The notes under the pieces were generated by a model. The model did not search any database. It saw only the letters and a program-made list of their open reading frames with translations, and was not told the DNA's origin. Shown here one piece after another: positions 1,758 through 31,106 of a stretch of DNA of 31,106 bases (positions are counted from its first letter, which is position 1; each line of letters starts with the position of its first letter). The DNA comes from a virus: positions 1-31,106 of the IMG/VR virus record IMGVR_UViG_3300046005_001266. One strand, 5' to 3'. Both the position numbers and the translations under genes were made by a program.

Positions 1758-1768
1758 TACCGGACAAC

Positions 1769-2629: not shown

Positions 2630-2641
2630 GAACCCACCACC

Positions 2642-2668
2642 ACCGCGCGGAATTGTCCGCGCGGTTTT
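2642..2668 (+). terminator. Rho-independent terminator
   Basis: A 10-bp perfect stem with the core CCGCGCGG on both arms (2643-2650 and 2657-2664), closed by A-T pairs at each end around a 4-nt loop, is followed by TTTT. It ends the unit begun at 1979 and separates it from the gp88-like gene. Confidence 0.85.
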
Positions 2669-2699
2669 CCATTTTCAGCATTTGATCAGGATTGCAAAC

Positions 2700-5369: not shown

Positions 5370-5414
5370 AAACCGTCGATGAGCTGCTTGCACCAGTTTG
5401 TCGGCGGTTTTTTT
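5370..5414 (+). terminator. Rho-independent terminator
   Basis: AAACCGTCGA (5370-5379) pairs with TCGGCGGTTT (5401-5410) with one G-T pair. The loop is 21 nt. The T-run ends at 5414. It lies immediately before the ribosome-binding site of the HNH gene at 5428, so the late-gene transcript probably starts after it or depends on antitermination. Confidence 0.75.
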
Positions 5415-5427
5415 GTGGAGATTGGTG

Positions 5428-13834: not shown

Positions 13835-14309
13835 CGATCGGGTGATCGAGATGCTGAACAGGAAGCTGACTGCTTCGATCAGGGCTGCAGCGGAACACTT
13901 GGCGGATGCTTACAAATACGGGCTGCAGTTGGATGAGTCTCCGGAGCATTCTCCTCCTAATCAGATACCTCATCGATACCTCGGTCACGCGAGAGACGGT
14001 TATGGTCCTGTAAACGGAGAAAATGAACCAAACAACACTCCACTTCAGGGATTCAGCGGGACTCAGACAGACTTTCTTGCAACTTACATTGACGGTGGAG
14101 CAGATGATGTTTTCGGGGTGGTTAATGGCTATGTGGGATTCCTTCCAAGTCACGTAACCAGAAGAGATCAGAACTACCTTCTTCAATGGGACCAAGGTAC
14201 AATCCCGCGAAAGCTAGGCGTAAGGCGACCATGGGTCGATGAGATTTATGATCGCAATAAGGGTTACATAAAGGCCGATGCGAAAGCAGCCTTCGAAGGA
14301 ACGAATTGA
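13806..14309 (+). CDS. putative tail-completion / neck protein
   Basis: This is a 167-residue protein. The start is set at GTG 13806 because GGAG lies at 13795-13798; it overlaps the previous gene by 29 nt. The N-terminal helix (RVIEMLNRKLTASIRAAAEHLADAYKYGL) and the C-terminal RRPWVDEIYDRNKGYIKADAKAAF resemble the layout of small neck proteins of the HK97 gp10 type, whose first and last helices are like these, but the match is by shape rather than motif. It would sit at the head-tail joint. The middle is Gly/Pro/Asn-rich and probably loops. Confidence 0.5.
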   Translation: MLTARYEDHSDRVIEMLNRKLTASIRAAAEHLADAYKYGLQLDESPEHSPPNQIPHRYLGHARDGYGPVNGENEPNNTPLQGFSGTQTDFLATYIDGGADDVFGVVNGYVGFLPSHVTRRDQNYLLQWDQGTIPRKLGVRRPWVDEIYDRNKGYIKADAKAAFEGTN

Positions 14310-15859: not shown

Positions 15860-16011
15860 AGAAGAAAGCTCCGGTGGATGTGGTTGACGGAAATCGCTAT
15901 AAGATGCTGGCGCTCGCAGTGACAAAGAACTCCGGGATCGGACTCCGGGAGGCAATGAGTCTGTCATTGGTTGAGGCTTATCTTGCGTTAGGAGCGACGA
16001 TCAGTGGCTGA
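15365..16011 (+). CDS. tail assembly chaperone frameshift fusion (GT-like)
   Basis: If ribosomes slip -1 on GGGAAAC (15790-15796), translation passes from residue 144 into the frame that stays open to the TGA at 16009-16011, adding 71 residues for a fusion of about 215. The added part (TTITVEKKAPVDVVDGNRYKMLALAVTKNSGIGLREAMSLSLVEAYLALGA) has sound protein character, lacks its own ribosome-binding site and start, and ends overlapping the tape measure start, just as lambda T does. The fusion is thought to hold the tape measure protein for tail tube polymerisation. Confidence 0.78.
15790..15835 (+). promoter_or_regulatory. -1 programmed ribosomal frameshift signal
   Basis: The slippery heptamer GGGAAAC (15790-15796) is in the X XXY YYZ phase of the upstream gene (codons CTG GGA AAC). 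Five bases later a stem-loop begins. TGGCCC (15802-15807) pairs with GGGCCA (15830-15835), and AGCG (15809-15812) pairs with CGCT (15825-15828), separated by a single G-G mismatch with a 12-nt loop. Heptamer, phase, spacer and stem all fit the standard model. Confidence 0.85.
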
Positions 16012-18580: not shown

Positions 18581-19776
18581 GCATGTACAACGATTACGAT
18601 TTTGATGTCATCGCAGTTGATCCGTCTGGATTCCTGAGTTACCAGTCTGGTAAGGCATCATCATCGCTGAAGTTTGTTATGTCCTGTGAGCATGCCGAGG
18701 AGTTCGCACTACGGCAGATGGGCAAATTCTGGACTTCCGCTGCGCCAAGTCCTGTGCTTCCTGTGCCGTTTCCATTCGACAACCTCACTGATCAGCCGCG
18801 AGGCTATGGGCGAATGAACCTTGTCGCAACAGGGTTTTCAATTGAGCCAGTGTCTGCCGCGTGCTTCGGCAACAATCTTAGCGCCCCGAGGGCTCCTGTT
18901 GGAGATCCTGCAGACATCGATACGATGGCTTTGTACTTCACTCCCTCTCCGGAACCAGAAGAGGAGCAGCCAGACAACTCCTGCTGCGAATGTATGGTGA
19001 CTCTGACATACGAGGAGAATCCGTGTGACTGCTGCGGGTACGACCAGAATTCTTTGAGCCCAACGTATCGGCAGTGGGTCGCTAATGATGAGATCTTGCC
19101 GGGGACGTGCATTTCCGTTGAGAGAAATCCAGCCTACGAAATGCTGACGCTTCCGAACGGAAATCTAATCTGGAAAGATCTTCCATCATCGACAGAAGAC
19201 GAGCAGATCGCAAGGCAGTTGAAATCTGATTCGTATGCGTACAAGATTATTCCAAAGGCTGACATCATCGTCAGTTGGCACAACGTCCCGGTCAGGAATA
19301 TTTGTGCAATTGAAAACCACCTGAGAAACTTCAGGGGAACAGTAAACGACTTGGCATGGGGCGACGTGCTTCAGTGCGATGCGGCTCCAGTTGCTCCAAC
19401 GGCATGCGGGTGTGGCCAGTACGAGCCAGAGACGATCATGTTCATCGACTATCAGGAAGACAGATCAAGGAGGACCGATGCGTTTGGCGGAAACTTCCTG
19501 AACTCTGGCGACCCTGCAAATAACATGAATACGACGACTCTCAAGCTGATCTTCAAGCAGAAGCGAATTGAGATACCCAATTCAGAGACATACTCTGACA
19601 GCAACGGCTGTCCTGACGATAATGACGAAGCCTATGGATGGAACCATCTGTTCTTCGACAGAAACACTGAAGACGACTCTCCTGGCGAATGGATGCGTGT
19701 CGCCGTTGACAACGCAACAGAAGATCCGCTCTTTCCGCTAAAATCATTCTCTGACATATTCTACCCAGTCCTATGA
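18577..19776 (+). CDS. putative distal tail structural protein
   Basis: This 399-residue protein starts by ATGA overlap at the end of the tape measure gene, the usual place for a distal tail or tail-tip protein. The sequence is mostly beta (MVTLTYEENP, YKIIPKADIIVSWHNVP, TLKLIFKQKRIEIP). Two Cys clusters stand out: CCECM ... CDCCGY at about 134-151, and ACGCGQYEP at about 274-282. Acidic and Pro-rich linkers (PSPEPEEEQPD) lie at about 122-132. It could contain a baseplate hub-like domain, but I do not recognise one. Its stop overlaps the Ser-rich gene's ATG. Confidence 0.65.
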   Translation: MSMYNDYDFDVIAVDPSGFLSYQSGKASSSLKFVMSCEHAEEFALRQMGKFWTSAAPSPVLPVPFPFDNLTDQPRGYGRMNLVATGFSIEPVSAACFGNNLSAPRAPVGDPADIDTMALYFTPSPEPEEEQPDNSCCECMVTLTYEENPCDCCGYDQNSLSPTYRQWVANDEILPGTCISVERNPAYEMLTLPNGNLIWKDLPSSTEDEQIARQLKSDSYAYKIIPKADIIVSWHNVPVRNICAIENHLRNFRGTVNDLAWGDVLQCDAAPVAPTACGCGQYEPETIMFIDYQEDRSRRTDAFGGNFLNSGDPANNMNTTTLKLIFKQKRIEIPNSETYSDSNGCPDDNDEAYGWNHLFFDRNTEDDSPGEWMRVAVDNATEDPLFPLKSFSDIFYPVL

Positions 19777-21464
19777 CAACACCAAAGCGATGGACTCCCG
19801 GAGATCCGATCACCGCTGAACGCCTAAACGCGACGATCAGCGAATCTGTTCGTCCGCGCCGAGACATTTCACTTGGTAATGGGTCATCGCTGGTCAATGA
19901 AACTCTTGGGAACCAGTCGGCCACTGAGAGGCACCAGCAGATAAAACTGGTTGTCGCTGTGACGGACTTCGCGATTTCCGGGACTCCGACAGACATCGCA
20001 GCATGGCCCGACGACATTCCGTCCGGACTGGTTAAAGAAGTCCGACTGAACCGCAGGTCAGGAACTCATGGGCAAGACGACTCTAATAAATCCTTCCGCG
20101 CCTACGACGCTGTCGGCGGATTAAATGGAGGGATTTGCCAGACGGGGACAACCACAAACCCTGCCAGCGAGTCATCGACAACGGCAGCCAGCAAGTTGGC
20201 ATGTGACGTTTTTTATGTCTTGTTCAATACAGCATCAAAGAGATGGGAAGTCATTGAGGCTGGCGGGCGCACCCATGAAATCTGGTTCACTATTGACGAG
20301 GTGCAGAGAGAACAGGAATGCGAAACAACCCTGATTGTCCGGCCAACTTACTACACAGGGGGATGCTCTACAGGGATTCCCGGCGAGGATCAGGACGGGC
20401 TGATCACTGTCACAGACCCATTCAGAACTCTGGAACAATACTCGGAAGAGTTTCTACTTGCTGCGACAGGACGTGCAACGTGGATGTATCCACGCACTGG
20501 CAACGGTTCCAGTAGTTCATCCGCTGAATCAACGAGCAGTTCTTCAGGTGGTGAGTGCGATCCAGTCTGGATCGTGGACATTATCTACGAAGCTGTAATA
20601 TGTGCTTCGTCGAGTTCATCATCGAGTAGTTCGTCATCCAGCAGCAGTTCGTCCTCAAGTAGTTCGTCCTCAAGTAGTTCTGCATCCAGTTCTGCATCCA
20701 GTTCTGCATCCAGTTCTGCATCCAGTTCTGCATCCAGTTCTGCATCCAGTTCTGCATCCAGTTCTGCATCCAGTTCTGCGTCCAGTTCTGCGTCAAGTTC
20801 TGCGTCAAGTTCTGCGTCAAGTTCTGCGTCAAGTTCTGCGTCAAGTTCTGCGTCTGCTTCTGCGTCTGCGTCTGCATCCGGAAGCAGTTCGTCATCCGGA
20901 AGCAGTTCTGCATCCAGTAGCAGTTCGTCATCCAGCAGTTCAGCATCCAGCAGTTCAGCATCCAGCAGTTCAGCATCTAGCAGTTCAGAATCTGATTCTG
21001 TGTCTGGTTCGGTGTCTGGTTCGGTGTCTGGTTCGGCGTCTGGTTCGGCGTCTGGTTCGGCGTCCAGCAGTAGTTCGGCGTCCAGTAGCAGTTCGTCATC
21101 CAGCAGTTCAGCATCCAGCAGTTCAGCATCCAGCAGTTCAGCATCCAGCAGTTCAGCATCCAGCAGTTCAGGATCTGATTCGGTGTCTGATTCGGTGTCT
21201 GGTTCGGTGTCTGGTTCGGTGTCTAGTTCGGTGTCTGGTTCGGAGTCCAGCAGTAGTTCGGCATCCAGCAGTAGTTCGGCATCCAGTTCGGCATCCGCAT
21301 CCAGTTCGGCATCCGCATCCAGTTCGGCGTCTTCCGAATCCGGATCATCTGACTCATCGGCAAGTTGCAATCTTGTTTTGATAGACGTAACTTTCGACTC
21401 CGTGACGTGTTCGCTGGTAAAGACGTTCTGCAACCTGACTACAGGCGAAATAACAACAGGGTAG
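19773..21464 (+). CDS. serine-rich repeat tail protein (putative fibre or spike stalk)
   Basis: This is a 563-residue protein. Residues 1-240 form a folded-looking N-terminal part with strands and a plausible tail-attachment role. Residues about 245-262 carry a first Ser cluster. Residues about 278-530 are low complexity, built only from Ser with Ala, Gly, Val, Asp and Glu, in SASS, GSVSGSAS and SSSSAS patterns. Residues 532-563 (C-N-L-V-L-I-D-V-T-F-D-S-V-T-C...) form a short end. The motif just before the stalk (CDPVWIVDIIYEAVIC) resembles the one just after it (CNLVLIDVTFDSVTC). Such stalks are expected to be extended and exposed, and dense Ser is a classic acceptor for O-glycosylation. The gene is part of the tail operon, and its stop abuts the next ATG. 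Confidence 0.8.
   Translation: MTTPKRWTPGDPITAERLNATISESVRPRRDISLGNGSSLVNETLGNQSATERHQQIKLVVAVTDFAISGTPTDIAAWPDDIPSGLVKEVRLNRRSGTHGQDDSNKSFRAYDAVGGLNGGICQTGTTTNPASESSTTAASKLACDVFYVLFNTASKRWEVIEAGGRTHEIWFTIDEVQREQECETTLIVRPTYYTGGCSTGIPGEDQDGLITVTDPFRTLEQYSEEFLLAATGRATWMYPRTGNGSSSSSAESTSSSSGGECDPVWIVDIIYEAVICASSSSSSSSSSSSSSSSSSSSSSSSSASSSASSSASSSASSSASSSASSSASSSASSSASSSASSSASSSASSSASSSASSSASASASASASGSSSSSGSSSASSSSSSSSSSASSSSASSSSASSSSESDSVSGSVSGSVSGSASGSASGSASSSSSASSSSSSSSSSASSSSASSSSASSSSASSSSGSDSVSDSVSGSVSGSVSSSVSGSESSSSSASSSSSASSSASASSSASASSSASSESGSSDSSASCNLVLIDVTFDSVTCSLVKTFCNLTTGEITTG
20608..21360 (+). repeat. serine-codon repeat tract inside the tail protein gene
   Basis: The tract is made of three repeat styles. 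From about 20678 to 20855 a 12-bp unit AGTTCTGCATCC (and variants with GCG and TCAAGT) recurs about 14 times, coding SSAS. From about 20935 to 20990, and again about 21085 to 21170, units of the kind AGCAGTTCAGCATCC recur. From about 20995 to 21060, and 21170 to 21245, TCTGGTTCGGTG-type units occur. Several serine codon families are mixed. Strand slippage would change the stalk length. Confidence 0.9.
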
Positions 21465-21959
21465 ATGGATATGAGTTCGGGTTCGAGTTCATCATACTGC
21501 CATTGCTGCAACAACTGTATCTGTGGTCGTCCAGTGGGAGATATCTTGCGGGTGCTGTGGTCATCAGGAAACGGCACGCATGGCTCAGCAGCGAGAGAGT
21601 TTCTCATTTACTACGGAATGCACGATGAGCCTGGGATCACGTGTTCCCCATTCTCACCAGACCCATTCCCGGGTTACCGTGGGAGTGTTTCTGGGACGTT
21701 CCCATTGCCAATGGGCGGAACAAGAGGCGACACTCTGGAAGTGATTTTAGTGTGTCAATGCATCGGGTGTGAGTTTTGCATATATTATCGGTGGGTAAAC
21801 GATGATGCTTATCCTACCTGGCAAGTGGTTCCTTACACCATTCTCACGTGTGACTGCCCTGCGGTCTTAGACGTGATCGGTGGTTTCACTGAAGGTAACT
21901 CTTGGGGGTATCAGGTCAGCGATGTCACTGTTTACGAGCTTGAAAGCAACTGTTTATGA
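21465..21959 (+). CDS. Cys-rich tail-region protein
   Basis: This 164-residue protein starts directly after the stop of the serine-rich gene. It opens MDMSSGSSSSYCHCCNNCICG, with five cysteines in a short stretch and a Ser run, and it has a second cluster (VCQCIGCEFCIYYRW) in the middle and CDCPAV later. Between them it is beta-rich with Gly, Thr and Asp (FPLPMGGTRGDTLEVILV). The cysteines could bind zinc or form disulfides in the extracellular particle. It is part of the tail block and may be a tail-tip or fibre accessory protein. No family is recognised. Confidence 0.6.
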   Translation: MDMSSGSSSSYCHCCNNCICGRPVGDILRVLWSSGNGTHGSAAREFLIYYGMHDEPGITCSPFSPDPFPGYRGSVSGTFPLPMGGTRGDTLEVILVCQCIGCEFCIYYRWVNDDAYPTWQVVPYTILTCDCPAVLDVIGGFTEGNSWGYQVSDVTVYELESNCL

Positions 21960-22111
21960 GACGCCTTCTGCTTGTTCTGTTGATTCCAATTGTGTCGCAA
22001 TTTGGAGTCCACTATTTCCGAATATTCGCTAAGGCAATTGGCGAGGCATCGGTCAACCAGTGGAAACAAGTGATGGTCGAAAACATTGAGAAGGAATTCC
22101 CTCGTGAGTGA
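21956..22111 (+). CDS. small membrane protein
   Basis: This 51-residue protein (MRRLLLVLLIPIVSQFGVHY...) has one N-terminal hydrophobic segment of about 15 residues after two arginines and a charged helical C-terminal part. ATG 21956 overlaps the upstream stop, and its end overlaps the next start by 8 nt. Topology would be a single membrane span with the tail facing one side. It could be a small holin-like or spanin-like lysis protein, or an accessory of the glycan genes that follow; no motif decides. It is placed exactly at the switch from tail to glycan genes. Confidence 0.55.
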   Translation: MRRLLLVLLIPIVSQFGVHYFRIFAKAIGEASVNQWKQVMVENIEKEFPRE

Positions 22112-24740
22112 TTGCCAGTGCGAACTGACCGGATTTTGTAAGGTGCGAAACATCGCAATGAAGCGAACGCATCAAATGATTTGCCGGGAGAATAAGCATC
22201 GCATGGACGCAATTCTGGCTGGCGAGCACACTAAAAGTCACGACGAAAACAACCAAGAAAAAGTGAAAGGTGTCGGAACAGTTCTGTCGTCAATCTTCAA
22301 AACTATTGGGATTGAATCGTCGGAAACTTGTAATTGCAGGCGATATGCAGTGGAGATGGATCGACGAGGGACGAAGTGGTGTCTTGAAAACATAGACACA
22401 ATCGTAGGATGGCTGCAAGAAGAAGCTGTCGCAAGAAAACTGGTGTTCTTTCGTGCTGGTGTAAAGATTGCCTTGTATTCATTACTTAAAAGCTATTCGA
22501 TATTTGAAAAGGTTCGTCCGGACAGCGGCGAGGACAGCAGGGTCTTCAGCAGGCGAGACGACGAATGGGCAGTCGCAGTCACGGCAGCACCGCGAGCCGG
22601 AGAGTACACTCTTGCCAAATGCCTGCAGTCAATAATTGCGGCTGGCTGGAGCGACCCTATTGTCTTCGCAGAGCCTGGCATCGAGGTGCCTGAAGGAATA
22701 ACCACATTCCACAACCCAGAACGTCGAGGCTGCTTTCACAACTGGCTTCACAGTGCAAAATGGGCACTTGAGAATACGCAAGCTGAAATGATCCTGTGCG
22801 TTCAGGACGACTCTCTGTTCCACCCGGACAGCAGGCAGTTCACCGAGGATCACTGCTTGTGGCCCAGTGATGACACTGGGATTGTCAGTCTCTACACTGC
22901 CTCGCACTACCAAAGCGAAAAAGGGGCGATGAAAGCAGTTGGGATTAACGAAGTCTACACGGGCGTATGGTGGGGCACTTGTGCTGTCGTTTGGAGGAGA
23001 TCAGCACTTGAGGCAGTGGTCAGCCATGAAATAACAAAGAACTGGCTGGGTATTTCACCACGGAAACAGGCTGATGAAACCCATAACCCTAAACTGCGAG
23101 CAAAAAGGGTCGCTGATTATTTTGAAGGAAGAAAAAAGCAGCCGCACCTAATCAACAACAGTGACTACGTCGCTGGGCATGTTCTCAACCTGCTTGGCTT
23201 CAGGAAGTTCTTTGTAGACCCATCCCCAGTATCACACATTGCCAAAGTCTCAACAATAAATCACGGAGGGAATAGCGGCAAGAGGAATTGCGCACGATGT
23301 GCAGACCATAAAAAACCACTCATGTCTCAGGTTGGGACAGTTATCAACAGGATTGAAAAGGAAGAAGACATTATGGCATCAGGAAGAGGACCAAGGCCAG
23401 CAGGAGCGTCGCTAATCATAACTCCGGGACCATCAGTTGGCGCTGTGCCGAAACATACGTTTCTGATAAGGACTTCGTTTCGAGATCCAATAGTGTCGGC
23501 CTACAGATGGAACGTCACTCAGCATACGTTGCTCAAGTCGCTCGCATCTCAAAACAACAAAGACTTTGAGATTCAACTCATCTGTGGAGATGATGACCCG
23601 CTGCGTGAAGTGAAGTTAGCGGCATTCAGTGAAGTTGCCCCGACAACAATTGCCCCGAAGGACTGGTACAACCAGCCACACGACGGGGTGTGGAGAAGAA
23701 CAACCCGAGTCGATGACGACGACATGCTGTCGATCCGGTTCGTAGAGCTTCTGGCAGAGCAGCCGTTTGACGGAACCGAATGTCTATTCAACTTCCCGAT
23801 CGGATGCCTATGGTCAGAGGGGGTGTCACATCGCTGGAATTACCCAGTGAATCAGTTCATTACCATTCAGACGAACACGCGACTGACTCCGTATCATTTT
23901 GCGCATCAATACTATCAGCAACTCCTGCCTGTTGTTGTCGTGACCGAGGAGATCCACTGGATGTGGATCAGGCACCACGGGGTACTCAGTGGGGCAACAC
24001 CGGGAGCAATTCCGAAGCGGTTTACGCATGGCGTGATACAGACAAACGCAAGTCTGTTTCCGTACGACTTTGCCACCATCAAGACTGCTCTAGTCCATGA
24101 TCAGTCGGCGGTCGTGAAGGTTTTGGAGTTGCGGGCGAAGTACGGACGAGTTGACAAAGATGTACTCAACATCTGCGCAAACGCGACGACTGATGAGTTA
24201 ACAACACTTGCAGCGACTTACGGAACTGACAAAGGTGTCACTGGGACTACAGACAAAAACCATCAGTACACGCTGGTCTACGATCGCCTGTTTAAGGGGA
24301 TGCGAGACCAGGTCGAACACGTCCTTGAATTCGGCGTGGGCACCGGCGCAAGTCTTCGAATGTGGGCAGACTATTTCCCTAAAGCGATGATTCACGGGCT
24401 GGACGTTAAGCGAAGAAGTGTGCCACATCCTCGGATCGTAACACACAGGTTTAACTCCATCACCCCGCTTGACACACACTTCAAGTTCTCATTGGTGATT
24501 GACGACGCGAGTCACATATCGAGTCACCAAAGAGTCATGTTCGAACTGCACAGCAAACATGTCAAGCCAGGAGGGTTCTATATAATTGAAGACCTTCATG
24601 CCTGCAGACTGGGTGGCAAGTATTTAAACGAATCTCCTTCAATGCTTGAAACATGCCGTCTGTGGGTGTCTACTCCGCCATTCGGATGGACGTGCCAGCT
24701 TTACGGCGACCAGTTGTGCATACTGCAGAAAGATGAATAG
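22104..24740 (+). CDS. three-domain glycosyltransferase - glycosyltransferase - methyltransferase
   Basis: This is an 878-residue protein (GTG 22104, AAGGA about 10 nt upstream). Residues 1-30 carry cysteines (CQCELTGFC ... MIC), and about 76-110 another Cys module (CNCRRYAVEMDRRGTKWC). Residues about 155-385 form a GT-A-like domain (AVAVTAAPR ... CVQDDSLFHPD, Asp-Asp at about 235-236). Residues about 450-650 form a second GT-like domain (TFLIRTSFRDP ... VDDDDMLS at about 536-541). Residues about 697-878 are a class I SAM methyltransferase of the sugar-methylating type (LAATYGTDKG, HVLEFGVGTGASLRMW, IHGLDV, VIDDASHISSHQ, IIEDLH). An in-frame ATG at 23373 with AAGGAAG ahead could make the second half alone. 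It begins the glycan cassette. Confidence 0.85.
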   Translation: MSDCQCELTGFCKVRNIAMKRTHQMICRENKHRMDAILAGEHTKSHDENNQEKVKGVGTVLSSIFKTIGIESSETCNCRRYAVEMDRRGTKWCLENIDTIVGWLQEEAVARKLVFFRAGVKIALYSLLKSYSIFEKVRPDSGEDSRVFSRRDDEWAVAVTAAPRAGEYTLAKCLQSIIAAGWSDPIVFAEPGIEVPEGITTFHNPERRGCFHNWLHSAKWALENTQAEMILCVQDDSLFHPDSRQFTEDHCLWPSDDTGIVSLYTASHYQSEKGAMKAVGINEVYTGVWWGTCAVVWRRSALEAVVSHEITKNWLGISPRKQADETHNPKLRAKRVADYFEGRKKQPHLINNSDYVAGHVLNLLGFRKFFVDPSPVSHIAKVSTINHGGNSGKRNCARCADHKKPLMSQVGTVINRIEKEEDIMASGRGPRPAGASLIITPGPSVGAVPKHTFLIRTSFRDPIVSAYRWNVTQHTLLKSLASQNNKDFEIQLICGDDDPLREVKLAAFSEVAPTTIAPKDWYNQPHDGVWRRTTRVDDDDMLSIRFVELLAEQPFDGTECLFNFPIGCLWSEGVSHRWNYPVNQFITIQTNTRLTPYHFAHQYYQQLLPVVVVTEEIHWMWIRHHGVLSGATPGAIPKRFTHGVIQTNASLFPYDFATIKTALVHDQSAVVKVLELRAKYGRVDKDVLNICANATTDELTTLAATYGTDKGVTGTTDKNHQYTLVYDRLFKGMRDQVEHVLEFGVGTGASLRMWADYFPKAMIHGLDVKRRSVPHPRIVTHRFNSITPLDTHFKFSLVIDDASHISSHQRVMFELHSKHVKPGGFYIIEDLHACRLGGKYLNESPSMLETCRLWVSTPPFGWTCQLYGDQLCILQKDE

Positions 24741-25507
24741 TGGAAGACATAAACGCAGTTGCTGCCATGAAGACGTACAGCAGCGACGATAACGCTTCTG
24801 ATCGCGAAGACATTCACAGGGCAATCAACACATACCAGAATACATGTGGCTTGCCGCTGCATGTGTTCGACGATAGTTCATGCCCGACGTATGTCGAGTA
24901 TTTGATGGGATTCAAGGGCGTTTTTCTTCACAAACATGGGGAGAATGTCGGGCCAACTGAGAACAGCAATCGCTGTATGAGTCTGTTCAAACAGTATCAC
25001 GAGATCGATGCGTTAATCCTGCTGGATGACGATATCGAGTTCCTGAAGCCTGGCTGGTCAGACCTATACCTCAATGCACTCTCAGACGAAGTTCAGCTAC
25101 TGTCATTCAATGACAAAGAAATCACGCAGTCACCCGGTGTCCCGCACGGCAACTACTCACTTTCGCAATGGAGTTGTGGAGTTTGCGTGACATTGACGCG
25201 GCAATGCTGGATGAAAGCTGGAATGTATGGACCATTCCCGGAAAAGTATGGATGGTGCCATATAGAGTACAACTGGCGATGTGCGTTACTGGGGCTCATC
25301 CCAATGGATGGGTTCTATGACGTACCTGGAATCCATAACTACATTAAGATTTCCTCTTACTTAGGAAGCGAAGAAAAGCTGCGTCAAATCGCAGTCAACT
25401 GGTCATCAGAAACAGTTCAGTTGACTGTAGATAAATACTTCGCAGGAGATCAGGAGAGATGGGATAAATTAAAGAAAATCAATCAACCACTGCGGCCAGT
25501 TAGGTAG
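24740..25507 (+). CDS. GT-A type glycosyltransferase
   Basis: This is a 255-residue protein. The pattern KTYSSDD ... INTYQNTCGLPLHVFDDSS and then ALILLDDDIEFLKPGW (Asp 96-98) is the nucleotide-sugar and metal-binding half of a GT-A glycosyltransferase. Later GWCHIEYNWRCALLGLIPMDGFYDVPG reads as the acceptor side with the usual acidic pair region. GTG 24740 shares one base with the previous stop; the start could instead be ATG 24767. No signal peptide or membrane segment is seen, so it is cytoplasmic. It is part of the run of glycan genes. Confidence 0.75.
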   Translation: MEDINAVAAMKTYSSDDNASDREDIHRAINTYQNTCGLPLHVFDDSSCPTYVEYLMGFKGVFLHKHGENVGPTENSNRCMSLFKQYHEIDALILLDDDIEFLKPGWSDLYLNALSDEVQLLSFNDKEITQSPGVPHGNYSLSQWSCGVCVTLTRQCWMKAGMYGPFPEKYGWCHIEYNWRCALLGLIPMDGFYDVPGIHNYIKISSYLGSEEKLRQIAVNWSSETVQLTVDKYFAGDQERWDKLKKINQPLRPVR

Positions 25508-25643
25508 CTACATCAGAATCACCTCGCACGATTGCAGGACCGCAGAGAGGGACAGGCAGGCTGGCATCAACGGGTTATCAGAGCAAGTCCAATCATCTCT
25601 AAGCAAATACACTGCGATGAGGCTGGAGGCAGGCATAGCATGA
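25473..25643 (+). other. orphan open frame without a standard start
   Basis: A 56-codon frame ends in an ATGA overlap with the cytidylyltransferase start, the coupling used throughout this genome. Its sequence reads like a helical protein (CRTAERDRQAGINGLSEQ and SLSKYTAMRLEAGIA). It has no ATG, GTG or TTG except an ATG eight codons from the end. It may be the remains of a decayed gene, or the 132-bp gap may be a leader. The reading is weak. Confidence 0.25.
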
Positions 25644-26053
25644 TCAAGGTCTACACGGGCGGAACTTTCGATTTGTTTCATGCGGGGCATGTGCGATTCC
25701 TTCGCCGGTGCGCAGATATCGGGTACGTGACGGTTTCAGTAAACACAGATGACTTTGTATTGCGGTATAAAGGGAAAGCCCCTGTCATCAAACTTGAGGA
25801 CCGCATTGCAGTCCTTGACGCATGCCGGTGGGTTTCATGCGTAGTGGTGAATGAAGGTGACGAAGATTCAAAAGTCGCAATTGAAAAGATTTCCCCGGAT
25901 GTAATCGCGATTGGTTCTGACTGGCAGGCAAAAGACTACTGCCGACAGATGGGGTTCACATCAGAATGGCTGGAAGCCAGAAACATTGCACTGGTATACC
26001 TGCCCTATACGGATGGAATTTCATCAACCTTGATTAAAGAGAGAATGCAATGA
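25640..26053 (+). CDS. cytidylyltransferase (glycerol-3-phosphate type)
   Basis: This is a 137-residue protein. VYTGGTFDLFHAGHVRFLRRC (4-24) contains the HxGH nucleotide-binding site (14-17), and LEDRIAVLDACRWV and YTDGISSTLIKERM (123-136) carry the closing ISSTLI motif of the TagD/PCYT family. Members join CTP to glycerol-3-phosphate or related alcohol phosphates, giving CDP-activated units for teichoic-acid-like or capsular polymers. The length is normal for the single-domain bacterial type. ATG 25640 has GGAGG about 15 bases upstream, and the open frame further upstream shows no family sequence. The stop overlaps the next ATG. Confidence 0.85.
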   Translation: MIKVYTGGTFDLFHAGHVRFLRRCADIGYVTVSVNTDDFVLRYKGKAPVIKLEDRIAVLDACRWVSCVVVNEGDEDSKVAIEKISPDVIAIGSDWQAKDYCRQMGFTSEWLEARNIALVYLPYTDGISSTLIKERMQ

Positions 26054-26712
26054 TTCACATTCTGATGCCGACCAGAAACAAGCCCGAAGAAATCACCAGA
26101 GTGTGCAGCGAGTTAAGCGGATCGGAGTGTCGACTGTGGCTTTACGTGGCAGATGACGACCCTAAACTCGGCGAATACCAATCATTGCGTTTACCGACTG
26201 CAGCAACAGTCGTCTTCGGAACACCACTGGGGTTCAGTCGCGGAGTGAATCATCTTGCGAGCATCGCAGCAAAACAGCCAAACGCGACTATGCTCATGCG
26301 TGCCGAGGATGACTTTTATTTCAAGCCGGGGTGGGATAAAAAATACAAAGAAGCCATGTGGAAAGACGGCGTCGGAATGGTATGGTGTAATTATGTGATG
26401 AAGGGGCCGGAAGCAGAGCCACACACAGCAGCGATAGGACTTGGGTGGTATCGTGCGCTCGGATGGTTTTCGTTGCCTGGCGTTCAACACCACTACTGCG
26501 ATAACGTGTTGCGAGAAATTGCTGAGGCCGCTGGTCGCAGCAGATACATCCCAGAGCCGATGATTGAGCATCGGCACAACCTCAAAGATCCAAGAAAGTG
26601 TGGGCATGGCCAGCAAATCTATGATGCAGACAAAAAAAGGTATGATCAGTGGCGGAGTGGCGAAAAAGCAGACGACTGCAGACGAATTTTCGAAGCTCGA
26701 CATGGAGTCTAG
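26050..26712 (+). CDS. GT-A type glycosyltransferase
   Basis: This is a 220-residue protein. IHILMPTRNKPEEITRVCSEL is the classic GT2-like opening strand and loop, followed by RLWLYVADDDPK and MLMRAEDDFYFKPGWD (EDD at 86-88 as metal-binding motif). The C-terminal part (YDADKKRYDQWRSGEKADDCRRIFEARHGV) is charged. It is cytoplasmic by sequence. The ATG overlaps the cytidylyltransferase stop, so it is co-translated. The substrate is unknown. Confidence 0.75.
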   Translation: MIHILMPTRNKPEEITRVCSELSGSECRLWLYVADDDPKLGEYQSLRLPTAATVVFGTPLGFSRGVNHLASIAAKQPNATMLMRAEDDFYFKPGWDKKYKEAMWKDGVGMVWCNYVMKGPEAEPHTAAIGLGWYRALGWFSLPGVQHHYCDNVLREIAEAAGRSRYIPEPMIEHRHNLKDPRKCGHGQQIYDADKKRYDQWRSGEKADDCRRIFEARHGV

Positions 26713-26860
26713 CCTGATTGCGGGCGAGATGATGATCAGGGTTCGCGTGACTGACGGGAAAGTGCTGACACGAGTTCAGACAAAAGAATTCCCGAACGCG
26801 GACATCGCAATCGCGGCAAAGTCAATCGAAGAACAATTGGCGACTCTGTACGCCACATAG
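26606..26860 (+). CDS. small hypothetical protein overlapping a glycosyltransferase gene
   Basis: This is an 84-residue protein if the ATG at 26606 is used; ATG 26642 (72 residues) or ATG 26702 (52 residues) are possible, and none has a convincing ribosome-binding site. The C-terminal half, beyond the neighbouring gene's stop at 26712, is clearly protein-like: IRVRVTDGKVLTRVQTKEFPNADIAIAAKSIEEQLATLYAT, two strands and a helix. The first half overlaps the glycosyltransferase in another frame, so its sequence may be only partly functional. No family is recognised. Confidence 0.5.
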   Translation: MASKSMMQTKKGMISGGVAKKQTTADEFSKLDMESSLIAGEMMIRVRVTDGKVLTRVQTKEFPNADIAIAAKSIEEQLATLYAT

Positions 26861-26865
26861 TATTG

Positions 26866-27615
26866 ATGGCGGCGAAATCAATGACCCAGTTCGTCTATCT
26901 CAACGTCATCGGTCCCGACAACGGCGAAGAACTCCGGCTGTCGATGGCATCCGTGCGGAAGAACTTCACAGGATCGTCGACGTTCACGATCATCGGTGAA
27001 AAGCCGAACTGGTACACAGGGCATCACATTCCGGCTTCACGCCTGACGAAGATGCGAGAACTGCCAGGTCGCATGGCGTTCCGCGACACACAAGCGAAGA
27101 TCATGCTGGCAGCGTCTCATCCGGAGATCGACGAAGAGTTCGTCTGGATGATGGATGACCAGTTCTTCCTGAAGCCAGCGTCGATCGAGGATCTCAGAGT
27201 TCTTCGGTACGATCCGTGGTATCGGACGAATTCGAAGCGTGAATGGCATCGACTGATCAAGATGACGTTCGCCGCGCTGGCTGCAAATGGCAGGTCTAAC
27301 TTTCAGGCCGGCACTCATCTTCCGCATGTCTTCGAGAAGACGAAACTGCAGCAGATGTTCGTCGAATACGGGTTCCCGAATAATTTGTACCTGTTCGAAA
27401 TACTGTACGAAAATCATTGGCAATTGGATCGCACGCCGATACCTTACGGAAGCATTTGGCAGGGTGTTCAGTATCCGCAGTTTCTGAAGAGATTGCTGAG
27501 GCCGCTGATGTCTCGCCAATTGAATGAAATTGATGCCAATGTGCTCAACTACCAGAGCAACGTATGGAGGCCGACTATGCGAGATTGGCTGAGGAACAGG
27601 TTTACGGAGGAATGA
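26866..27615 (+). CDS. glycosyltransferase-like protein
   Basis: This is a 249-residue protein. The opening FVYLNVIGPDNGEELRLSMASVRKNFTG ... FTIIGEKP and the acidic EEFVWMMDDQFFLKP (DDQ at 97-99) match the GT-A nucleotide-binding half. THLPHVFEKTKLQQMFVEYGF resembles the acceptor region of Stealth-type and capsular phosphotransferase proteins. The basic C-terminus lacks a membrane span. ATG 26866 is preferred, but there is no strong ribosome-binding site; an ATG at 26881 is an alternative. It may transfer a sugar or sugar-phosphate; the exact reaction cannot be read. Confidence 0.7.
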   Translation: MAAKSMTQFVYLNVIGPDNGEELRLSMASVRKNFTGSSTFTIIGEKPNWYTGHHIPASRLTKMRELPGRMAFRDTQAKIMLAASHPEIDEEFVWMMDDQFFLKPASIEDLRVLRYDPWYRTNSKREWHRLIKMTFAALAANGRSNFQAGTHLPHVFEKTKLQQMFVEYGFPNNLYLFEILYENHWQLDRTPIPYGSIWQGVQYPQFLKRLLRPLMSRQLNEIDANVLNYQSNVWRPTMRDWLRNRFTEE

Positions 27616-27616
27616 G

Positions 27617-29107
27617 ATGCTCAATGTTTTCACCTACTGGGAGCATGCTCCGAAAGCTCGCAAGTGGCCTTACATTGAATTTTGCCTCGACACTATTCGA
27701 TCGAAGTGTTTGGACGGCTGTTTGTTCCACCATATTACTTCAGCGAATATCGAGAAGTACATCCCAGACGGGATCATTCATCCGTCATGGAAGAACATCA
27801 AAGAACTCGGTGTGAAGTCCGATTGCGTCCGCGCTGCTGTGCTGATGCAGTATGGCGGGCTTTACATTGACGCAGATACGCTGATGCTGCGATCGCCAAA
27901 GGAACTCGACACAGGGCATGAATGCGGATTCATGACGTGGTCTACTCCGCCGCGACGGGTAATCGCTGGTTACATCTACTGCTTCCCAGGCAGCGAAGTC
28001 GCGAAGAAGTGGGTTGCGAATATCAATGCAATGCTCGAGCAGGGAAAGCATGGATGGACTGATCTTGGAGAGAGGTGCCTGACTCCTGCCGTTGATTCCA
28101 GCGAAAACACGATCAACTGGCCTTTGGCGACATTCCTCCCAATAGAGATCGACACGGATGTCCAGCGGTTCTTTAGCAGTTCTCCGTGGAAGGCTCCGGA
28201 TCAGTCAGTCGCGATTGGATTGAATCATTCTCTTATGACGAGGAAGTATGCTGGAGAAATGAGGTCTGCAGGTCACGAGAATGCGTCGTTTAAGAAAAGA
28301 TCGAAGGACTCAAAGCTAACGATTCACAAGATCTTCAGCAAAAGCAGATCATCTCAGAGTCAAATGAGGATCGGAGTTTGCGTTCCAACATTCCGCAGGC
28401 CGAAACTGCTTGGGCATTTGATCTCCTGCTTCGAAAGCCAAAAGTACGAAGACAGGCTCCTGATCGCATATGACGACCATGGAGAGATCGCTGAGTCGTC
28501 CGGCGATCGCTGGAAGATCGTAAGTCGCAACGATCCACATGCCTCTCTAGGAGATAAGAGAAACGCGATCGCTGAGATGTTCGGCGATTCCGTCGATGCA
28601 TTCGTGTTCTGGGATGACGACGACATCTTCCTTCCTGATGCATTGTCTGCCGTGGAGAACGCACTGAGCCGATCAGACTGGTGCAGGGCGAGTCAGGTAC
28701 TTGTTCGTGGAACTCGGGATCTGTCGCGGTGCAAGACTTACTGGCGCGAAGACAAGTCTGACAAAGCGTTTCAGTGTACCTGGGGGGTGACTCGTTCTGC
28801 GTTCTGGAGTGTCGGCGGGTTCGATTCTGTTTCTCTGGGAGAAGACCTTCGACTTGCAAAGAAACTGCGAGACGCGAAGATCAGCGAGGCTGACCCGATT
28901 GCAATGGGATGGAGTCCTTATGCTGTTTCATCGCCATACGGAAATGAACACTTTTCGTGGACTGTTAAGGATTACGAGAAGTGGAAGGATGTCGCAAAGT
29001 CTGACGGCGAATTCAGGGTTGCGGATCATCCATTCAGTTTGAAGATTGCAGATCATGTCAATGATCGATCTTGGAAGGGAGATTGGTATGACGACGAAGT
29101 ACGATGA
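27617..29107 (+). CDS. two-domain glycosyltransferase (GT32-like + GT2-like)
   Basis: This is a 496-residue protein. Residues 1-240 look like a GT32 / Gly_transf_sug domain: FTYWEHAP, KSDCVRAAVLMQYGGLYIDADT with the Asp-Ala-Asp motif at 85-87, then a WSTPPRR and CFPGSEVA part. After a basic Ser-rich linker (about 225-250), residues 251-470 form a GT2-like domain: RIGVCVPTFRRPKLL, then AFVFWDDDDIFLPDALSAV with Asp 333-336, and a WGVTRSAFWSVGGFDSVSLGEDLRLAKKL acceptor segment. Each half has a complete nucleotide-binding motif, so it may add two sugars in sequence. AGGAATGA ahead of ATG 27617 supports the start. Confidence 0.85.
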   Translation: MLNVFTYWEHAPKARKWPYIEFCLDTIRSKCLDGCLFHHITSANIEKYIPDGIIHPSWKNIKELGVKSDCVRAAVLMQYGGLYIDADTLMLRSPKELDTGHECGFMTWSTPPRRVIAGYIYCFPGSEVAKKWVANINAMLEQGKHGWTDLGERCLTPAVDSSENTINWPLATFLPIEIDTDVQRFFSSSPWKAPDQSVAIGLNHSLMTRKYAGEMRSAGHENASFKKRSKDSKLTIHKIFSKSRSSQSQMRIGVCVPTFRRPKLLGHLISCFESQKYEDRLLIAYDDHGEIAESSGDRWKIVSRNDPHASLGDKRNAIAEMFGDSVDAFVFWDDDDIFLPDALSAVENALSRSDWCRASQVLVRGTRDLSRCKTYWREDKSDKAFQCTWGVTRSAFWSVGGFDSVSLGEDLRLAKKLRDAKISEADPIAMGWSPYAVSSPYGNEHFSWTVKDYEKWKDVAKSDGEFRVADHPFSLKIADHVNDRSWKGDWYDDEVR

Positions 29108-29795
29108 AGAGAAGCGATTCTGGAAGGATGAGATCTCTTTTTACGTCCGATGGTTCCACGGAAGAATCAAGGAACTGTACGGCATTCCCTGTCCGAAGCA
29201 GCATGAGAAGATTCAGCGTTTCTCTTCGGAAGAACTGAATGCGATCGAGACGTGGATCAATGCCGACAAATGGCGATACTGCAAGAGACTGCATGTTGAG
29301 CCAACGTACTTCTCGGGCAAGAAAGTTCTGGAAGTTGGCTCTGGTCCGCTGGGGTTGAGTCGGTTCTTTGCTGGCGCGGAAGTGCATTATCTCGATCCAC
29401 TTCATGCATGGTACTGGCAGTGCGGATACCGCAAGGTTGGATATTCAATCGAGGCGAGAATAGAAGACTGCATGCACCATCGATATGACGCTGTAATTTC
29501 AGTGAATGCAATCGATCATGTCGATCAGTTTGAAGACGCAATCGATGCCTGTGAAATGATGTGCGACATGGACGGCGAAATCCGCATGGACATCCACTAC
29601 CACGCACCAACAGTCACAGAACCACACGTCCTGAATGACGAGATCGTCGCTGCGGCATTTAAGAGATTCGACATGAAGAAGATAGCGGAGAATCCGTCGC
29701 GAGTCTTCTATCCACGCGGTACGCATCCAGACTCCGATCGATTCGCTGTGTGGAGCAATCGCGACTACGTTTATGACGCAGTGAGGTCGCTGTGA
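29088..29795 (+). CDS. class I SAM-dependent methyltransferase
   Basis: This is a 235-residue protein. The N-terminal helical part (KRFWKDEISFYVRWFHGRIKELYG) is followed by the SAM-binding motif I KVLEVGSGPLGLSRFF (79-94), motif II VHYLDPLHAW (99-108), and YDAVISVNAIDHVDQFEDAIDAC (motif IV region). This order is typical of small-molecule or sugar methyltransferases. AGGGAG at about 29077-29082 supports ATG 29088, which overlaps the glycosyltransferase end by 20 nt. The acceptor is unknown. It is one of three methyltransferase domains in the cassette. Confidence 0.8.
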   Translation: MTTKYDEEKRFWKDEISFYVRWFHGRIKELYGIPCPKQHEKIQRFSSEELNAIETWINADKWRYCKRLHVEPTYFSGKKVLEVGSGPLGLSRFFAGAEVHYLDPLHAWYWQCGYRKVGYSIEARIEDCMHHRYDAVISVNAIDHVDQFEDAIDACEMMCDMDGEIRMDIHYHAPTVTEPHVLNDEIVAAAFKRFDMKKIAENPSRVFYPRGTHPDSDRFAVWSNRDYVYDAVRSL

Positions 29796-30712
29796 ACCGA
29801 GAACAAGCACTTGCAAAGATGGTCGCCCCTGTCAAGAAGCGAAAGACTGCCTGGCTGAAAGGAATCATCCAGATCCACGTCACCCGCGCCTGTGATTTGG
29901 CATGCTCCAATTGCACGCAAGGATCTCAGTTCGGAGGCAAGGCCTCGTTCATTACCGAAGAAAACTTCGAGGCGGCTGTCATCAGTCTGAAGGACTATTT
30001 CGGCGTTGTGGGGATCTTCGGCGGGAATGCCGCTCTTGCTCCAAACTTCGAAGCACTCTGCCTAATCCTTGAAAAGCATATCCCGAAGAATCGTCGAGGA
30101 CTCTGGTGCAACAATCCACGAGGACACGGCAAGCTGATGCGACGGGTGTTTAACCCGAAAGTTTCGAACCTGAATGTGCATTTGGTTAAGGACGCCTACG
30201 ACGAATTTAAGCGTGACTGGCCAGAGTCAGAACCGTTCGGACTTCACCACGACTCACGTCATTCTCCCGTCTACGGATCACTGGAGAAACTGGTTCCGGA
30301 CGAGTCGCAGCGATGGGATCTCATCGGCAACTGTGCGATCAACCAGAACTGGTCGGCGATGATCTGTCAGTTCCGTGGCGAACTTCGCGGATACTTCTGC
30401 GAGATTGCTGGCGGGCAGGCGATGCTGAACCAAGAGAATCCGGAATACCCTGATACCGGAGTGAGAATCGAGGCAGGATGGTGGAAGAAGGCGATGCCGG
30501 AATACGGCGCACAAGTCGACTTTCATTGCCATCGATGTCTCGTTCCGTTGAACGGTCACGGGGCGCTGGCTCAGGCCGACAAGAAGACACAGGTCACGGA
30601 AGAGTATTCTCACCTGAAGTTAAAGTCTGGAGGAACATTCCAGATCGTCGACAGTGTCAATGACATTCTTCCCGAAGAAAATCGCATCGTGACGGAGTAC
30701 CTTGGAACATGA
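29792..30712 (+). CDS. radical SAM protein
   Basis: This is a 306-residue protein. TRACDLACSNCTQ (32-43) supplies the CxxxCxxC [4Fe-4S]-binding motif (C34, C38, C41). GVVGIFGGNAALAPNFEAL stands where the GGEP motif lies in the family. Cysteines at 181, 192, 203, 246 and 249 (GNCAINQ, MICQFRG, YFCEIAG, FHCHRC) are placed like the SPASM/twitch ligands for a second cluster. Radical SAM enzymes start difficult reactions such as C-C bond formation, epimerisation or complex methylation. A role in modifying the glycan or a peptide is inference. GTG 29792 overlaps the upstream stop (GTGA), and the end overlaps the next ATG. Confidence 0.85.
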   Translation: MNREQALAKMVAPVKKRKTAWLKGIIQIHVTRACDLACSNCTQGSQFGGKASFITEENFEAAVISLKDYFGVVGIFGGNAALAPNFEALCLILEKHIPKNRRGLWCNNPRGHGKLMRRVFNPKVSNLNVHLVKDAYDEFKRDWPESEPFGLHHDSRHSPVYGSLEKLVPDESQRWDLIGNCAINQNWSAMICQFRGELRGYFCEIAGGQAMLNQENPEYPDTGVRIEAGWWKKAMPEYGAQVDFHCHRCLVPLNGHGALAQADKKTQVTEEYSHLKLKSGGTFQIVDSVNDILPEENRIVTEYLGT

Positions 30713-31106
30713 GAATACAAACTCGTGACTGCTTGGGTGATGTTGCGAACGCTTTGGGCCTTAGAACTGCTGTCGAGGTAGGGACTCATCAGGCAGTATT
30801 TGCCCGCTCATTCATGAAGAGATTCAGGGGATCGATCACGCTTGTCGATCCTTGGCTCGACTACGAGCAGGGCAAGGATGCGTTTTATCCTTCTGTCGAC
30901 CCAACAAGCAAGACTCGATCGAAGGACATGCAGATCGCCGTCGGGATCATGACGGAATTCTACGGACGGGTGACTTTTATGCAGACGACGGGTGAGCAGG
31001 CGTCTCATTCGTTTGCCGATTCATCAGTCGGCATTGTCTACATCGACGCACTTCACGAGTATCAAGACGTGATCAGCGATATCAACACATGGTTTCCGAA
31101 AGTTGC
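30709..31106 (+). CDS. class I SAM-dependent methyltransferase, N-terminal part (cut by window edge)
   Basis: The first 132 codons are present; the window ends inside the gene. AVEVGTHQAVFARSF (21-35) is motif I, SITLVDPW (42-49) motif II, and GIVYIDALHEYQDVISDINTWF (108-129) is the pattern seen in the Methyltransf_24-like group of sugar and macrolide methyltransferases. ATG 30709 overlaps the radical SAM stop by ATGA. It is therefore a further member of the coupled glycan genes, and the cassette goes on beyond the window. Confidence 0.8.
   Translation, partial: MRIQTRDCLGDVANALGLRTAVEVGTHQAVFARSFMKRFRGSITLVDPWLDYEQGKDAFYPSVDPTSKTRSKDMQIAVGIMTEFYGRVTFMQTTGEQASHSFADSSVGIVYIDALHEYQDVISDINTWFPKV

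What the first reader, a model, noticed from the sequence alone, without database searches (positions are those of the whole stretch)
19773..30712. Serine-rich tail protein followed at once by a glycan-building cassette: possible self-glycosylated phage tail
A 563-residue tail protein with about 250 residues of Ser-dominated stalk is followed, after one Cys-rich tail gene and one small membrane-protein gene, by an unbroken chain of glycosyltransferases, methyltransferases, a cytidylyltransferase and a radical SAM enzyme. Overlapping starts and stops run through most of this stretch. In Gram-positive bacteria, serine-rich repeat adhesins are encoded beside the glycosyltransferases that decorate them. 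The layout here suggests the same logic in a phage: the stalk would be an acceptor for O-linked, methylated sugars, which could shield the virion or alter host binding. Alternatives are modification of host surface sugars or of other virion proteins. Sequence gives only proximity and enzyme families; the acceptor is inference.
Basis: partly seen in the sequence, partly recalled or inferred. Interest (0 to 1): 0.88.

Follow-up and report, generated by a model that had tools for sequence, protein, structure and literature searches.

The report
Serine-stalked phage tail with sugar enzymes
In a group of viruses that probably infect Planctomycetota bacteria, a very long serine-rich stalk in a probable tail protein and a small set of sugar-attaching enzymes come and go together as one exchangeable package, which makes it plausible, but not proven, that the virus sugar-coats its own tail.

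Summary
g20 (19773-21464) has a 254-residue stalk, 74% Ser, followed by a mostly overlapping chain of glycosyltransferase, methyltransferase, nucleotidyltransferase and radical-SAM genes. The interpretation must be split. Related phage contigs allow a natural test. The proximal genes g22-g25 (22104-26712) occur only with the stalk: they are in 3 of 3 stalk-bearing lineages and 0 of 9 nearer stalk-less ones. The distal genes do not track the stalk: g26 is in 15 of 26 records with or without it, and g27-g30 are missing from stalk-bearing L004 yet present in six stalk-less lineages. Stalk and g22-g25 sit together on three different backbones (monophyly at g14 rejected), with lower dS than either flank, although g21 between them differs in each. 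Near-identical phages differ by whole stalk repeats. g22 joins a GT13-like domain, a rhamnosyltransferase-like domain and a macrolide-sugar-type O-methyltransferase. Best reading: an exchangeable module whose cytosolic enzymes put methylated O-glycans on a mucin-like tail stalk. The acceptor is inferred, independent assortments number only three, and a bare polyserine spacer remains possible. Virion glycosylation by phages is known, so I call this a new variant.

The parts
16004..18580 (+). g18, probable tape measure protein (anchors the tail region)
   Evidence: weak PHROG match to tail length tape measure, E 2.2e-4
18577..19776 (+). g19, tail-region protein of unknown family, next to g18
   Evidence: 58-92% identity in the close relatives other than L003; no Pfam family
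19773..21464 (+). g20, N-terminal conserved domain plus Ser stalk plus Cys-bracketed C-terminus
   Evidence: ORF; g20 homologs in 22 of 41 records
20604..21365 (+). Ser stalk, residues 278-531 of g20, 187 of 254 Ser, tandem repeats
   Evidence: the only indels seen against near-identical phages
21465..21959 (+). g21, Cys-rich protein, a different one in each stalk-bearing lineage (possible tip)
   Evidence: no tblastn match in 10 of 10 strains other than L003; first 18 aa shared with L005
21956..22111 (+). 21b, 51-aa membrane-like ORF
22104..24740 (+). g22, Cys motif + GT13-like GT + rhamnosyltransferase-like GT + macrolide-sugar-type O-methyltransferase
   Evidence: full length only in stalk-bearing phages
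24740..25507 (+). g23, glycosyltransferase (LLDDDIEF motif)
   Evidence: phrog_2456 E 4.6e-14; only in stalk-bearing phages among 26 records
25640..26053 (+). g24, nucleotidyltransferase between TagD and HldE-C families
   Evidence: only in stalk-bearing phages among 26 records
26050..26712 (+). g25, glycosyltransferase; its pairing with g24 recurs in actinophages
   Evidence: phrog_14945 E 3.4e-20
26564..26860 (+). g25b, small ORF overlapping the end of g25, seen only with the module; start and reality uncertain
   Evidence: 97-100% identical in L004/L005, absent from the 8 stalk-less strains
26863..27615 (+). g26, GT-like by motif only; core gene, present with or without stalk
   Evidence: phrog_7999, unknown function; 15 of 26 records
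27617..29107 (+). g27, two-domain glycosyltransferase; not linked to the stalk
   Evidence: PF05704, PF04488, PF00535
29046..29795 (+). g28, probable class I methyltransferase; not linked to the stalk
   Evidence: weak Methyltransf_11 E 0.016
29792..30712 (+). g29, radical SAM protein; homologs in two bacterial MAGs
30709..31106 (+). g30, methyltransferase, cut by the window end
   Evidence: full copy in L212 hits Methyltransf_24 E 2.5e-14

Best explanation
The finding is two things joined. (1) An exchangeable module of g20 with its long Ser stalk plus g22-g25. Shown: these genes co-occur and have moved together. Inferred: g24 makes an activated donor used by g25; g22, g23 and g25, working in the cytosol before assembly, build an O-methylated (possibly rhamnose-containing) glycan on the stalk serines; the resulting stiff mucin-like rod carries or extends the variable Cys-rich tip (g21); rod length changes by gain and loss of whole repeats. 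(2) A core glyco island (g26 and, downstream of the window, g31-g33, with the optional g27-g30) that the phage lineage keeps whatever its tail stalk. It acts on something else or on something general, perhaps the short Ser linkers seen in every region checked. The host is most likely a Planctomycetota bacterium.
For: Co-occurrence: near full-length g22 in 4 of 41 records, all stalk-bearing; SSSA array in 4 of 22 records with g20, the same four; g24, g23 and g25 in 4 of 26 each, the same four; a separate collection scan with g25 returns the same four contigs. Lineages: 3 of 3 with stalk vs 0 of 9 nearer ones without, Fisher p 0.0045. Moves as a unit: at g14 each stalk-bearing backbone groups with a different stalk-less phage (window-L008 94%, L004-L007/L011 99%, L005-L006/L012 98-99%); monophyly rejected at g14 (p 1e-40) and g18 (p 1.5e-9), while g20-N is one clade, support 100/99. 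dS window-L005: g19 0.68, g20-N 0.04, g22 0.04, g23 0.07, g24 0.08, g25 0.13, g26 0.36; window-L004: 0.57, 0.17, 0.15, 0.17, 0.39, 0.17, 0.45. Purifying selection: dN/dS 0.03-0.21 for g23-g25 and 0.16-0.44 for g22 (the variable N-terminus raises g22). Enzyme types: MT domain to 3ssm (recalled as MycE) E 4.7e-18 and demethylmacrocin O-methyltransferase 8ia9 E 6.9e-14; first GT domain to protein O-mannose GlcNAc-transferase 5ggi Z 17.9 and GnT-I Z 16.9, next family 14.9. No strongly hydrophobic segment in g22-g25 by a 19-residue scan (maximum 1.08), as expected for cytosolic enzymes. Stalk length differs by whole repeats (12 and 30 nt) between near-identical phages.
Against: Only three independent assortments; a sign test on them cannot reach significance (p 0.25). 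The genes are contiguous, so one acquisition followed by block exchange gives the same pattern without any functional tie. No initiating Ser-O-glycosyltransferase of a known family was identified; GtfA/GtfB-type enzymes were not seen among the families scanned. No known family covers g20, and its place in the virion is not shown. Long Ser linkers with no known function exist in other bacteria (PMC2699552, passages read). GT-A folds resemble one another, so the GT13-like match does not fix the acceptor.
Confidence: 0.5

Rival explanations
1. The stalk is a bare, flexible polyserine spacer and g22-g25 are passengers: the two were acquired side by side once and now ride together when homologous recombination in the flanks swaps the tail-tip block.
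For: The module is contiguous, lies between g19 and g26 which relatives share, and dS shows recent block exchange. Short Ser linkers occur in every stalk-less region checked without g22-g25. Polyserine linkers of about 40 residues, 80% Ser, of unknown function occur in carbohydrate-active enzymes of Teredinibacter and relatives (PMC2699552, passages).
Against: g21 between stalk and enzymes differs in all three stalk-bearing lineages, so it was replaced at least twice without separating them. 254 residues is far longer than the quoted linkers. g22-g25 are under purifying selection. No record searched has one part without the other.
Confidence: 0.25
2. g22-g25 glycosylate another virion protein (capsid, tail tube, or the g21 tip), as in mycobacteriophages, and the stalk matters only mechanically.
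For: Phage glycans on capsid and tail-tube C-termini are described for mycobacteriophages (reported in PMC12619734 and PMC12363180, passages). The g22 methyltransferase domain matches mycobacteriophage methyltransferases (9 of 14 records hit); the one region viewed has a GT gene beside it.
Against: The putative capsid protein g10 (so named by position; no PHROG hit) is 99% identical between the window and stalk-less L006, L007, L011 and L012, so a capsid acceptor would not explain why the enzymes follow the stalk allele. g21 differs in each stalk-bearing lineage.
Confidence: 0.13
3. The enzymes modify host surface glycans (receptor masking or seroconversion).
For: Phage GTs can modify host serotype (PMC12619734, passage); the distal GT g27 has capsule-synthesis and sugar-binding GT domains; a distant (28%) g29 homolog lies beside an ORF that looks by eye like an ABC transporter ATPase (locus L220).
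Against: No strongly hydrophobic, flippase-like or membrane-GT-like protein was seen among g22-g25. The genes sit at the end of the tail operon. No integrase was noticed, but that was not searched for.
Confidence: 0.09
4. The enzymes glycosylate phage DNA bases.
For: DNA glucosylation by phage GTs is a known role (PMC12619734, passage).
Against: In the near-identical genome G001, 13 ORFs outside the structural and sugar genes were scanned (some in one library only): an N6-adenine methyltransferase was found but no base hydroxymethylase or base kinase. Not every ORF was scanned.
Confidence: 0.03

Closest known systems
Serine-rich repeat protein (SRRP) adhesin loci of Gram-positive bacteria (Fap1, GspB, L. 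reuteri SRRP)
   Same: Ser-rich repeat acceptor candidate, Ser mixed with Ala/Val/Gly, encoded beside several glycosyltransferases (definition from PMC6973325 passages).
   Different: No LPXTG end and no accessory Sec family among the genes scanned; no GtfA/GtfB-type enzyme found; a probable tail gene of a phage; a methyltransferase domain and a nucleotidyltransferase belong to the module.
Mycobacteriophage virion glycosylation (Che8, Corndog, Myrna)
   Same: Phage-encoded glycosyltransferases with methyltransferases; the g22 methyltransferase domain matches mycobacteriophage methyltransferases.
   Different: Reported acceptors there are capsid and tail-tube C-termini (primary paper not held). 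Here the candidate is a 254-residue Ser stalk, the enzymes travel with it, and the GT domains of g22 did not match (one search hits cover residues 725-854 only).
Polyserine linkers of marine polysaccharide-degrading bacteria
   Same: Long, nearly pure Ser segments between folded parts.
   Different: About 40 residues in carbohydrate-active enzymes against 254 here in a probable phage tail gene with co-inherited sugar enzymes.
GT + nucleotidyltransferase pairs of Streptomyces and Arthrobacter phages (Beuffert, Mimi, MeganTheeKilla)
   Same: Homologs of g25 and g24 carry consecutive gene numbers in five phages listed in both searches.
   Different: In Beuffert, the one such region viewed (matched by g24), the pair lies among DNA-metabolism genes, not at the tail.

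Membership tests
SRRP glycosylation locus | Long Ser-rich repeat with Ser mixed with Ala/Val/Thr | tested here: met
   187 of 254 Ser, the rest mostly Ala, Gly, Val; definition from PMC6973325 passages
SRRP glycosylation locus | Two to ten glycosyltransferase genes co-located | tested here: met
   GT domains in g22 (two), g23, g25, then g27
SRRP glycosylation locus | LPXTG wall anchor at the C-terminus | tested here: not met
   g20 ends ...CNLTTGEITTG
SRRP glycosylation locus | Accessory Sec (SecA2/SecY2/Asp) genes in the cluster | tested here: not met
   no such family among g20-g29 or g22-g31
SRRP glycosylation locus | GtfA/GtfB initiating O-GlcNAc transferase | tested here: inconclusive
   no family hit, but g23 and g25 have no close characterised relatives
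Mycobacteriophage-type virion glycosylation | Phage-encoded GTs plus methyltransferases | tested here: met
Mycobacteriophage-type virion glycosylation | Glycan demonstrated on virion proteins | not testable with these tools
   needs virions and mass spectrometry
Mycobacteriophage-type virion glycosylation | Homologous glycosyltransferases (Che8 gp110 / Corndog gp38 cluster) | tested here: inconclusive
   g22 tblastn hits in mycobacteriophages cover only the methyltransferase domain; g23 has no hit in the phage collection
Polyserine linker | About 80% Ser, joins folded domains, tens of residues | tested here: inconclusive
   74% Ser, but 254 residues
Phage O-antigen seroconversion (Gtr) cluster | Membrane flippase GtrA, polyprenyl GT GtrB and membrane GT | tested here: not met
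   no membrane GT or flippase among g22-g25; highest 19-residue hydropathy 1.08; no Gtr family hit. Definition recalled

The most novel reading that the evidence does not exclude
A phage version of the serine-rich-adhesin logic: a repeat-length-variable, mucin-like glycosylated tail stalk whose acceptor gene and private glycosylation and O-methylation enzymes form one allele that is exchanged as a unit among phages of Planctomycetota, giving each virion lineage a switchable sugar coat and a tunable reach to its receptor.
Probability: 0.4. Interest if true: 0.82.

Novelty: new variant of a known kind. Interest (0 to 1): 0.6.

Why it matters
To my knowledge phage virion glycans are known from few systems, and which acceptor goes with which enzyme usually has to be found by mass spectrometry. 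Here natural recombination has already done a genetic separation: it assigns four enzyme genes (g22-g25) to the Ser-stalk allele and sets g26-g30 apart. That turns a vague 'glyco-cassette' into a small co-expression test (one acceptor, four enzymes). If true, it would be a dedicated protein O-glycosylation module on a phage tail, with a repeat-number-variable acceptor. It would bear on how phages hide or tune their adsorption apparatus.

Tried and rejected
Whole-cassette reading (g22-g30 all serve the stalk): rejected by g26-g30 in stalk-less relatives and the absence of g27-g30 from stalk-bearing L004.

9 passed a loose cut, and only one was a long stalk, which was the contig of L004 again. 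So no generalisation beyond this clade was possible; the SSSA pattern also misses other repeat types. I did not look at the neighbours of the shorter Ser runs.

Structure: g20 N-part model pLDDT 48 with no viral fold match at E <= 0.001; g20, g23 and g25 profiles found nothing usable in the PDB. Only residues about 60-385 of the g22 model are roughly usable.

Host by capsid in genome contigs: no relative. A g29 scan gave 2 loci: one in a Schlesneria MAG, one in a MAG of unnamed taxon on a contig with tail-like ORFs (read by eye).

Literature: the listings of searches (titles and abstract starts) showed no paper pairing a phage Ser-rich tail protein with GTs. The library lacks most subscription journals, and the key paper (Freeman 2023) is not held, so I know it only through sentences in other papers.

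Errors and dropped rows: the g14 and g22 rows were out of frame; redid them. In one search L003 was left out (near-copy of the window). L010 (same phage as L009), L002 and L003 (same as the window) and L204 (near-copy of L209) were not counted as lineages. In one search, L204 and L208 hold little sequence past g20, so the lack of g22-g25 in L208 is weak evidence.


Full report
WHAT THE WINDOW IS. The window is a whole virus record of 31,106 bases from IMG/VR with a siphophage-like order: terminase, portal, protease, putative capsid g10 (by position; no PHROG hit), tape measure. Its closest kin in the collection, G001, is 55,725 bases and covers all but the first 3 bases of the window. The first 126 bases of G001 recur at its end, with the last base of the overlap disagreeing, so it is probably a nearly closed genome of about 55.6 kb, although listed as linear.

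THE OBSERVATION. g20 (19773-21464, 563 aa) contains a 254-residue stalk with 187 Ser, made mainly of 12-, 15- and 18-nt repeats, followed by g21, a 51-aa membrane-like ORF, then g22 to g30 with mostly overlapping or abutting ends and gaps of about 130-150 nt at g23-g24 and g25-g26. Mixed Ser codons and mostly third-position differences (29 of 45 and 68 of 97) indicate that the Ser frame is the translated one. The finding is real.

THE ENZYMES. g22 is one long ORF. Residues 153-420 model as a GT-A domain closest to protein O-mannose GlcNAc-transferase (5ggi, Z 17.9, rmsd 3.3 over 215 residues) and GnT-I (Z 16.9), with the next group at 14.9 (both are GT13 enzymes, recalled). Its middle matches a putative rhamnosyltransferase family (E 2.4e-6). 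Its end matches sugar O-methyltransferases (3ssm, recalled as MycE, E 4.7e-18; 8ia9, demethylmacrocin O-methyltransferase, E 6.9e-14). g23 and g25 are GTs by PHROGs. g24 is a nucleotidyltransferase that scores the same against the heptose-1-phosphate adenylyltransferase and glycerol-3-phosphate cytidylyltransferase models (74.2 and 73.4 bits, both far below cut-off), so its substrate is open. g25 and g24 homologs are neighbours in distant actinophages: of 12 rows listed for g25, five (Mimi, Racecar, Talia1610, MeganTheeKilla, Jada) are also among the 20 rows listed for g24, with consecutive gene numbers in all five. I read g24 as making the donor for g25 (inference).

THE NATURAL TEST. Scans with g19, g20, g26, g22, g10 and g25 gave related phages. 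tabulates 12 strains. g22 (near full length), g23, g24, g25 and g25b occur in the window, L003, L004 and L005, all with the stalk, and in none of L006, L007, L008, L009, L011, L012, L036 and L203; partial g22 matches of 26-30% in five of these fit the separate core genes g32/g33. g26 is in all 12. g27-g30 are in six of the eight stalk-less strains (not L008, L009) and absent from stalk-bearing L004, where g26 is followed by g31-g33 without them. Whole-record searches agree: near full-length g22 in 4 of 41 records (15 of 41 have some match), g20 in 22 of 41, the SSSA array in 4 of the 22 with g20, g24, g23 and g25 in 4 of 26 each, g26 in 15 of 26, g29 in 12 of 41, two of them bacterial genomes. 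For the module and the array, the four are always the same. Counting lineages once (L002 and L003 with the window, L010 with L009; L202 added), 3 of 3 stalk-bearing and 0 of 9 nearer stalk-less lineages have the module (Fisher 0.0045; 0 of 16 with more distant ones, 0.001). The lineages are related, so these p-values overstate.

IT MOVES AS ONE UNIT. At g14 the window is closest to L008 (94%), L004 to L007 and L011 (99%), L005 to L006 and L012 (98-99%): three backbones, each nearer to a different stalk-less phage. One clade of stalk-bearers is rejected at g14 (p 1e-40) and g18 (p 1.5e-9), while g20-N forms one clade with 100/99 support. dS in window-L005 drops from 0.68 (g19) to 0.04-0.13 (g20-N and g22-g25) and rises to 0.36 (g26); in window-L004 from 0.57 to 0.15-0.17 (0.39 for g24), then 0.45. 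Inside this block g21 differs: L005 shares only its first 18 residues with the window, and L004 has a protein that resembles that of stalk-less L007 (30%) instead. So recombination has cut between stalk and enzymes without parting them. Against over-reading: there are only three assortments (sign test p 0.25), and contiguity alone could explain much of it.

STALK LENGTH. Against G001 the window has 6 mismatches, five of them clustered at window 2686-2714 just inside the start of the G001 contig (a variant or an edge effect) and one at 12192, and the only indels are +12 and +30 nt in the stalk. Against G002, in the stretches compared (window 4893-29743), the one mismatch is again at 12192 and the one indel is +30 nt in the stalk. 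These are whole SSSA and SSSSA units. Metagenome assembly of repeats can err, so this needs long reads.

THE CORE ISLAND. After g30, G001 continues with g31-g33. g32 and g33 resemble the two GT domains of g22 at 27-29%, and g31 hits a GT2 family below cut-off (E 8.7e-5). A g31 homolog is found in all 17 lineages examined, down to 32% identity, in most with g33 and in many with g32; where the sequence held ends early (L006, L007, L012) the later genes are cut off. Short Ser linkers were found in all 15 regions checked (7-26 residues in the stalk-less ones). The stalk may therefore be an overgrown form of a family habit, and g22 a fused paralog of core GTs (inference).

HOST. A capsid profile matched 3 of 294 Planctomycetota genomes; two of the matches, the two examined, lie in prophage-like regions with terminase, portal, protease and capsid homologs in the same order. 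A g29 homolog (60%) lies on a contig with ordinary bacterial genes in a Schlesneria MAG. No other phylum was searched as a control in the same way, so Planctomycetota is likely, not proven.

MECHANISM AND VERDICT. Most likely the module's cytosolic enzymes O-glycosylate and O-methylate the stalk before assembly, giving a stiff, repeat-tunable rod near the tail tip. Shown: stalk, enzyme families, co-occurrence, block exchange, purifying selection (dN/dS 0.03-0.21 for g23-g25, 0.16-0.44 for g22). Inferred: acceptor, sugar, order of steps, virion location. Phage virion glycosylation is known (passages), and the SRRP pairing is known in bacteria (passages); a phage module that pairs them was not seen in the listings of searches of an open-licence library. 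I file it as a new variant of a known kind.

Noticed in passing
window 1-2686 and G001 ends: The first 126 bases of G001 recur at its end (the final base disagrees), so a near-identical phage genome of about 55.6 kb is probably nearly closed although listed as linear; five mismatches to the window sit right after this overlap.
   Followed up: partly
window 22104-22200; L206:4343, L207:4517, L208:5161, L210:3881, L008:14229: A short Cys motif (C-x-C-x3-G-x-C-x2-R...) starts g22 and also ORFs just after the tail genes in relatives (read by eye); possibly a metal-binding tag of this phage family.
   Followed up: no
window 16004-18580 (g18) and 13773-14309 (g14): Tape measure and g14 are hypervariable (down to 36% and 53% identity among the close relatives) while g15-g17 between them stay at 85-99% to the window: strong mosaicism.
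   Followed up: partly
window 21465-21959 (g21) and the ORF after g20 in L004-L009, L011, L012: The ORF after g20 varies from 132 to 713 aa in nine lineages; only L006 and L009 match over full length (73%), L004 and L007 at 30%, others share short N-termini or nothing, as expected for a receptor-binding tip.
   Followed up: partly
L225 and L226: Prophage-like regions in two unnamed Planctomycetota genomes share terminase, portal, protease and capsid order with this phage.
   Followed up: partly
window 29792-30712; L201:1171-2202; L220: The radical SAM protein has a 60% homolog next to a MazG-like ORF (by eye) in a Schlesneria MAG and a distant 28% one beside an ABC-transporter-like ORF; function unknown.
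   Followed up: partly
window 197-601, 1141-1671, 5398-5943: Three ORFs look alike, like HNH/AP2-type endonuclease paralogs (read by eye, not searched).
   Followed up: no
L213:3680-4690: The near-identical genome encodes a D12-class N6-adenine DNA methyltransferase.
   Followed up: no
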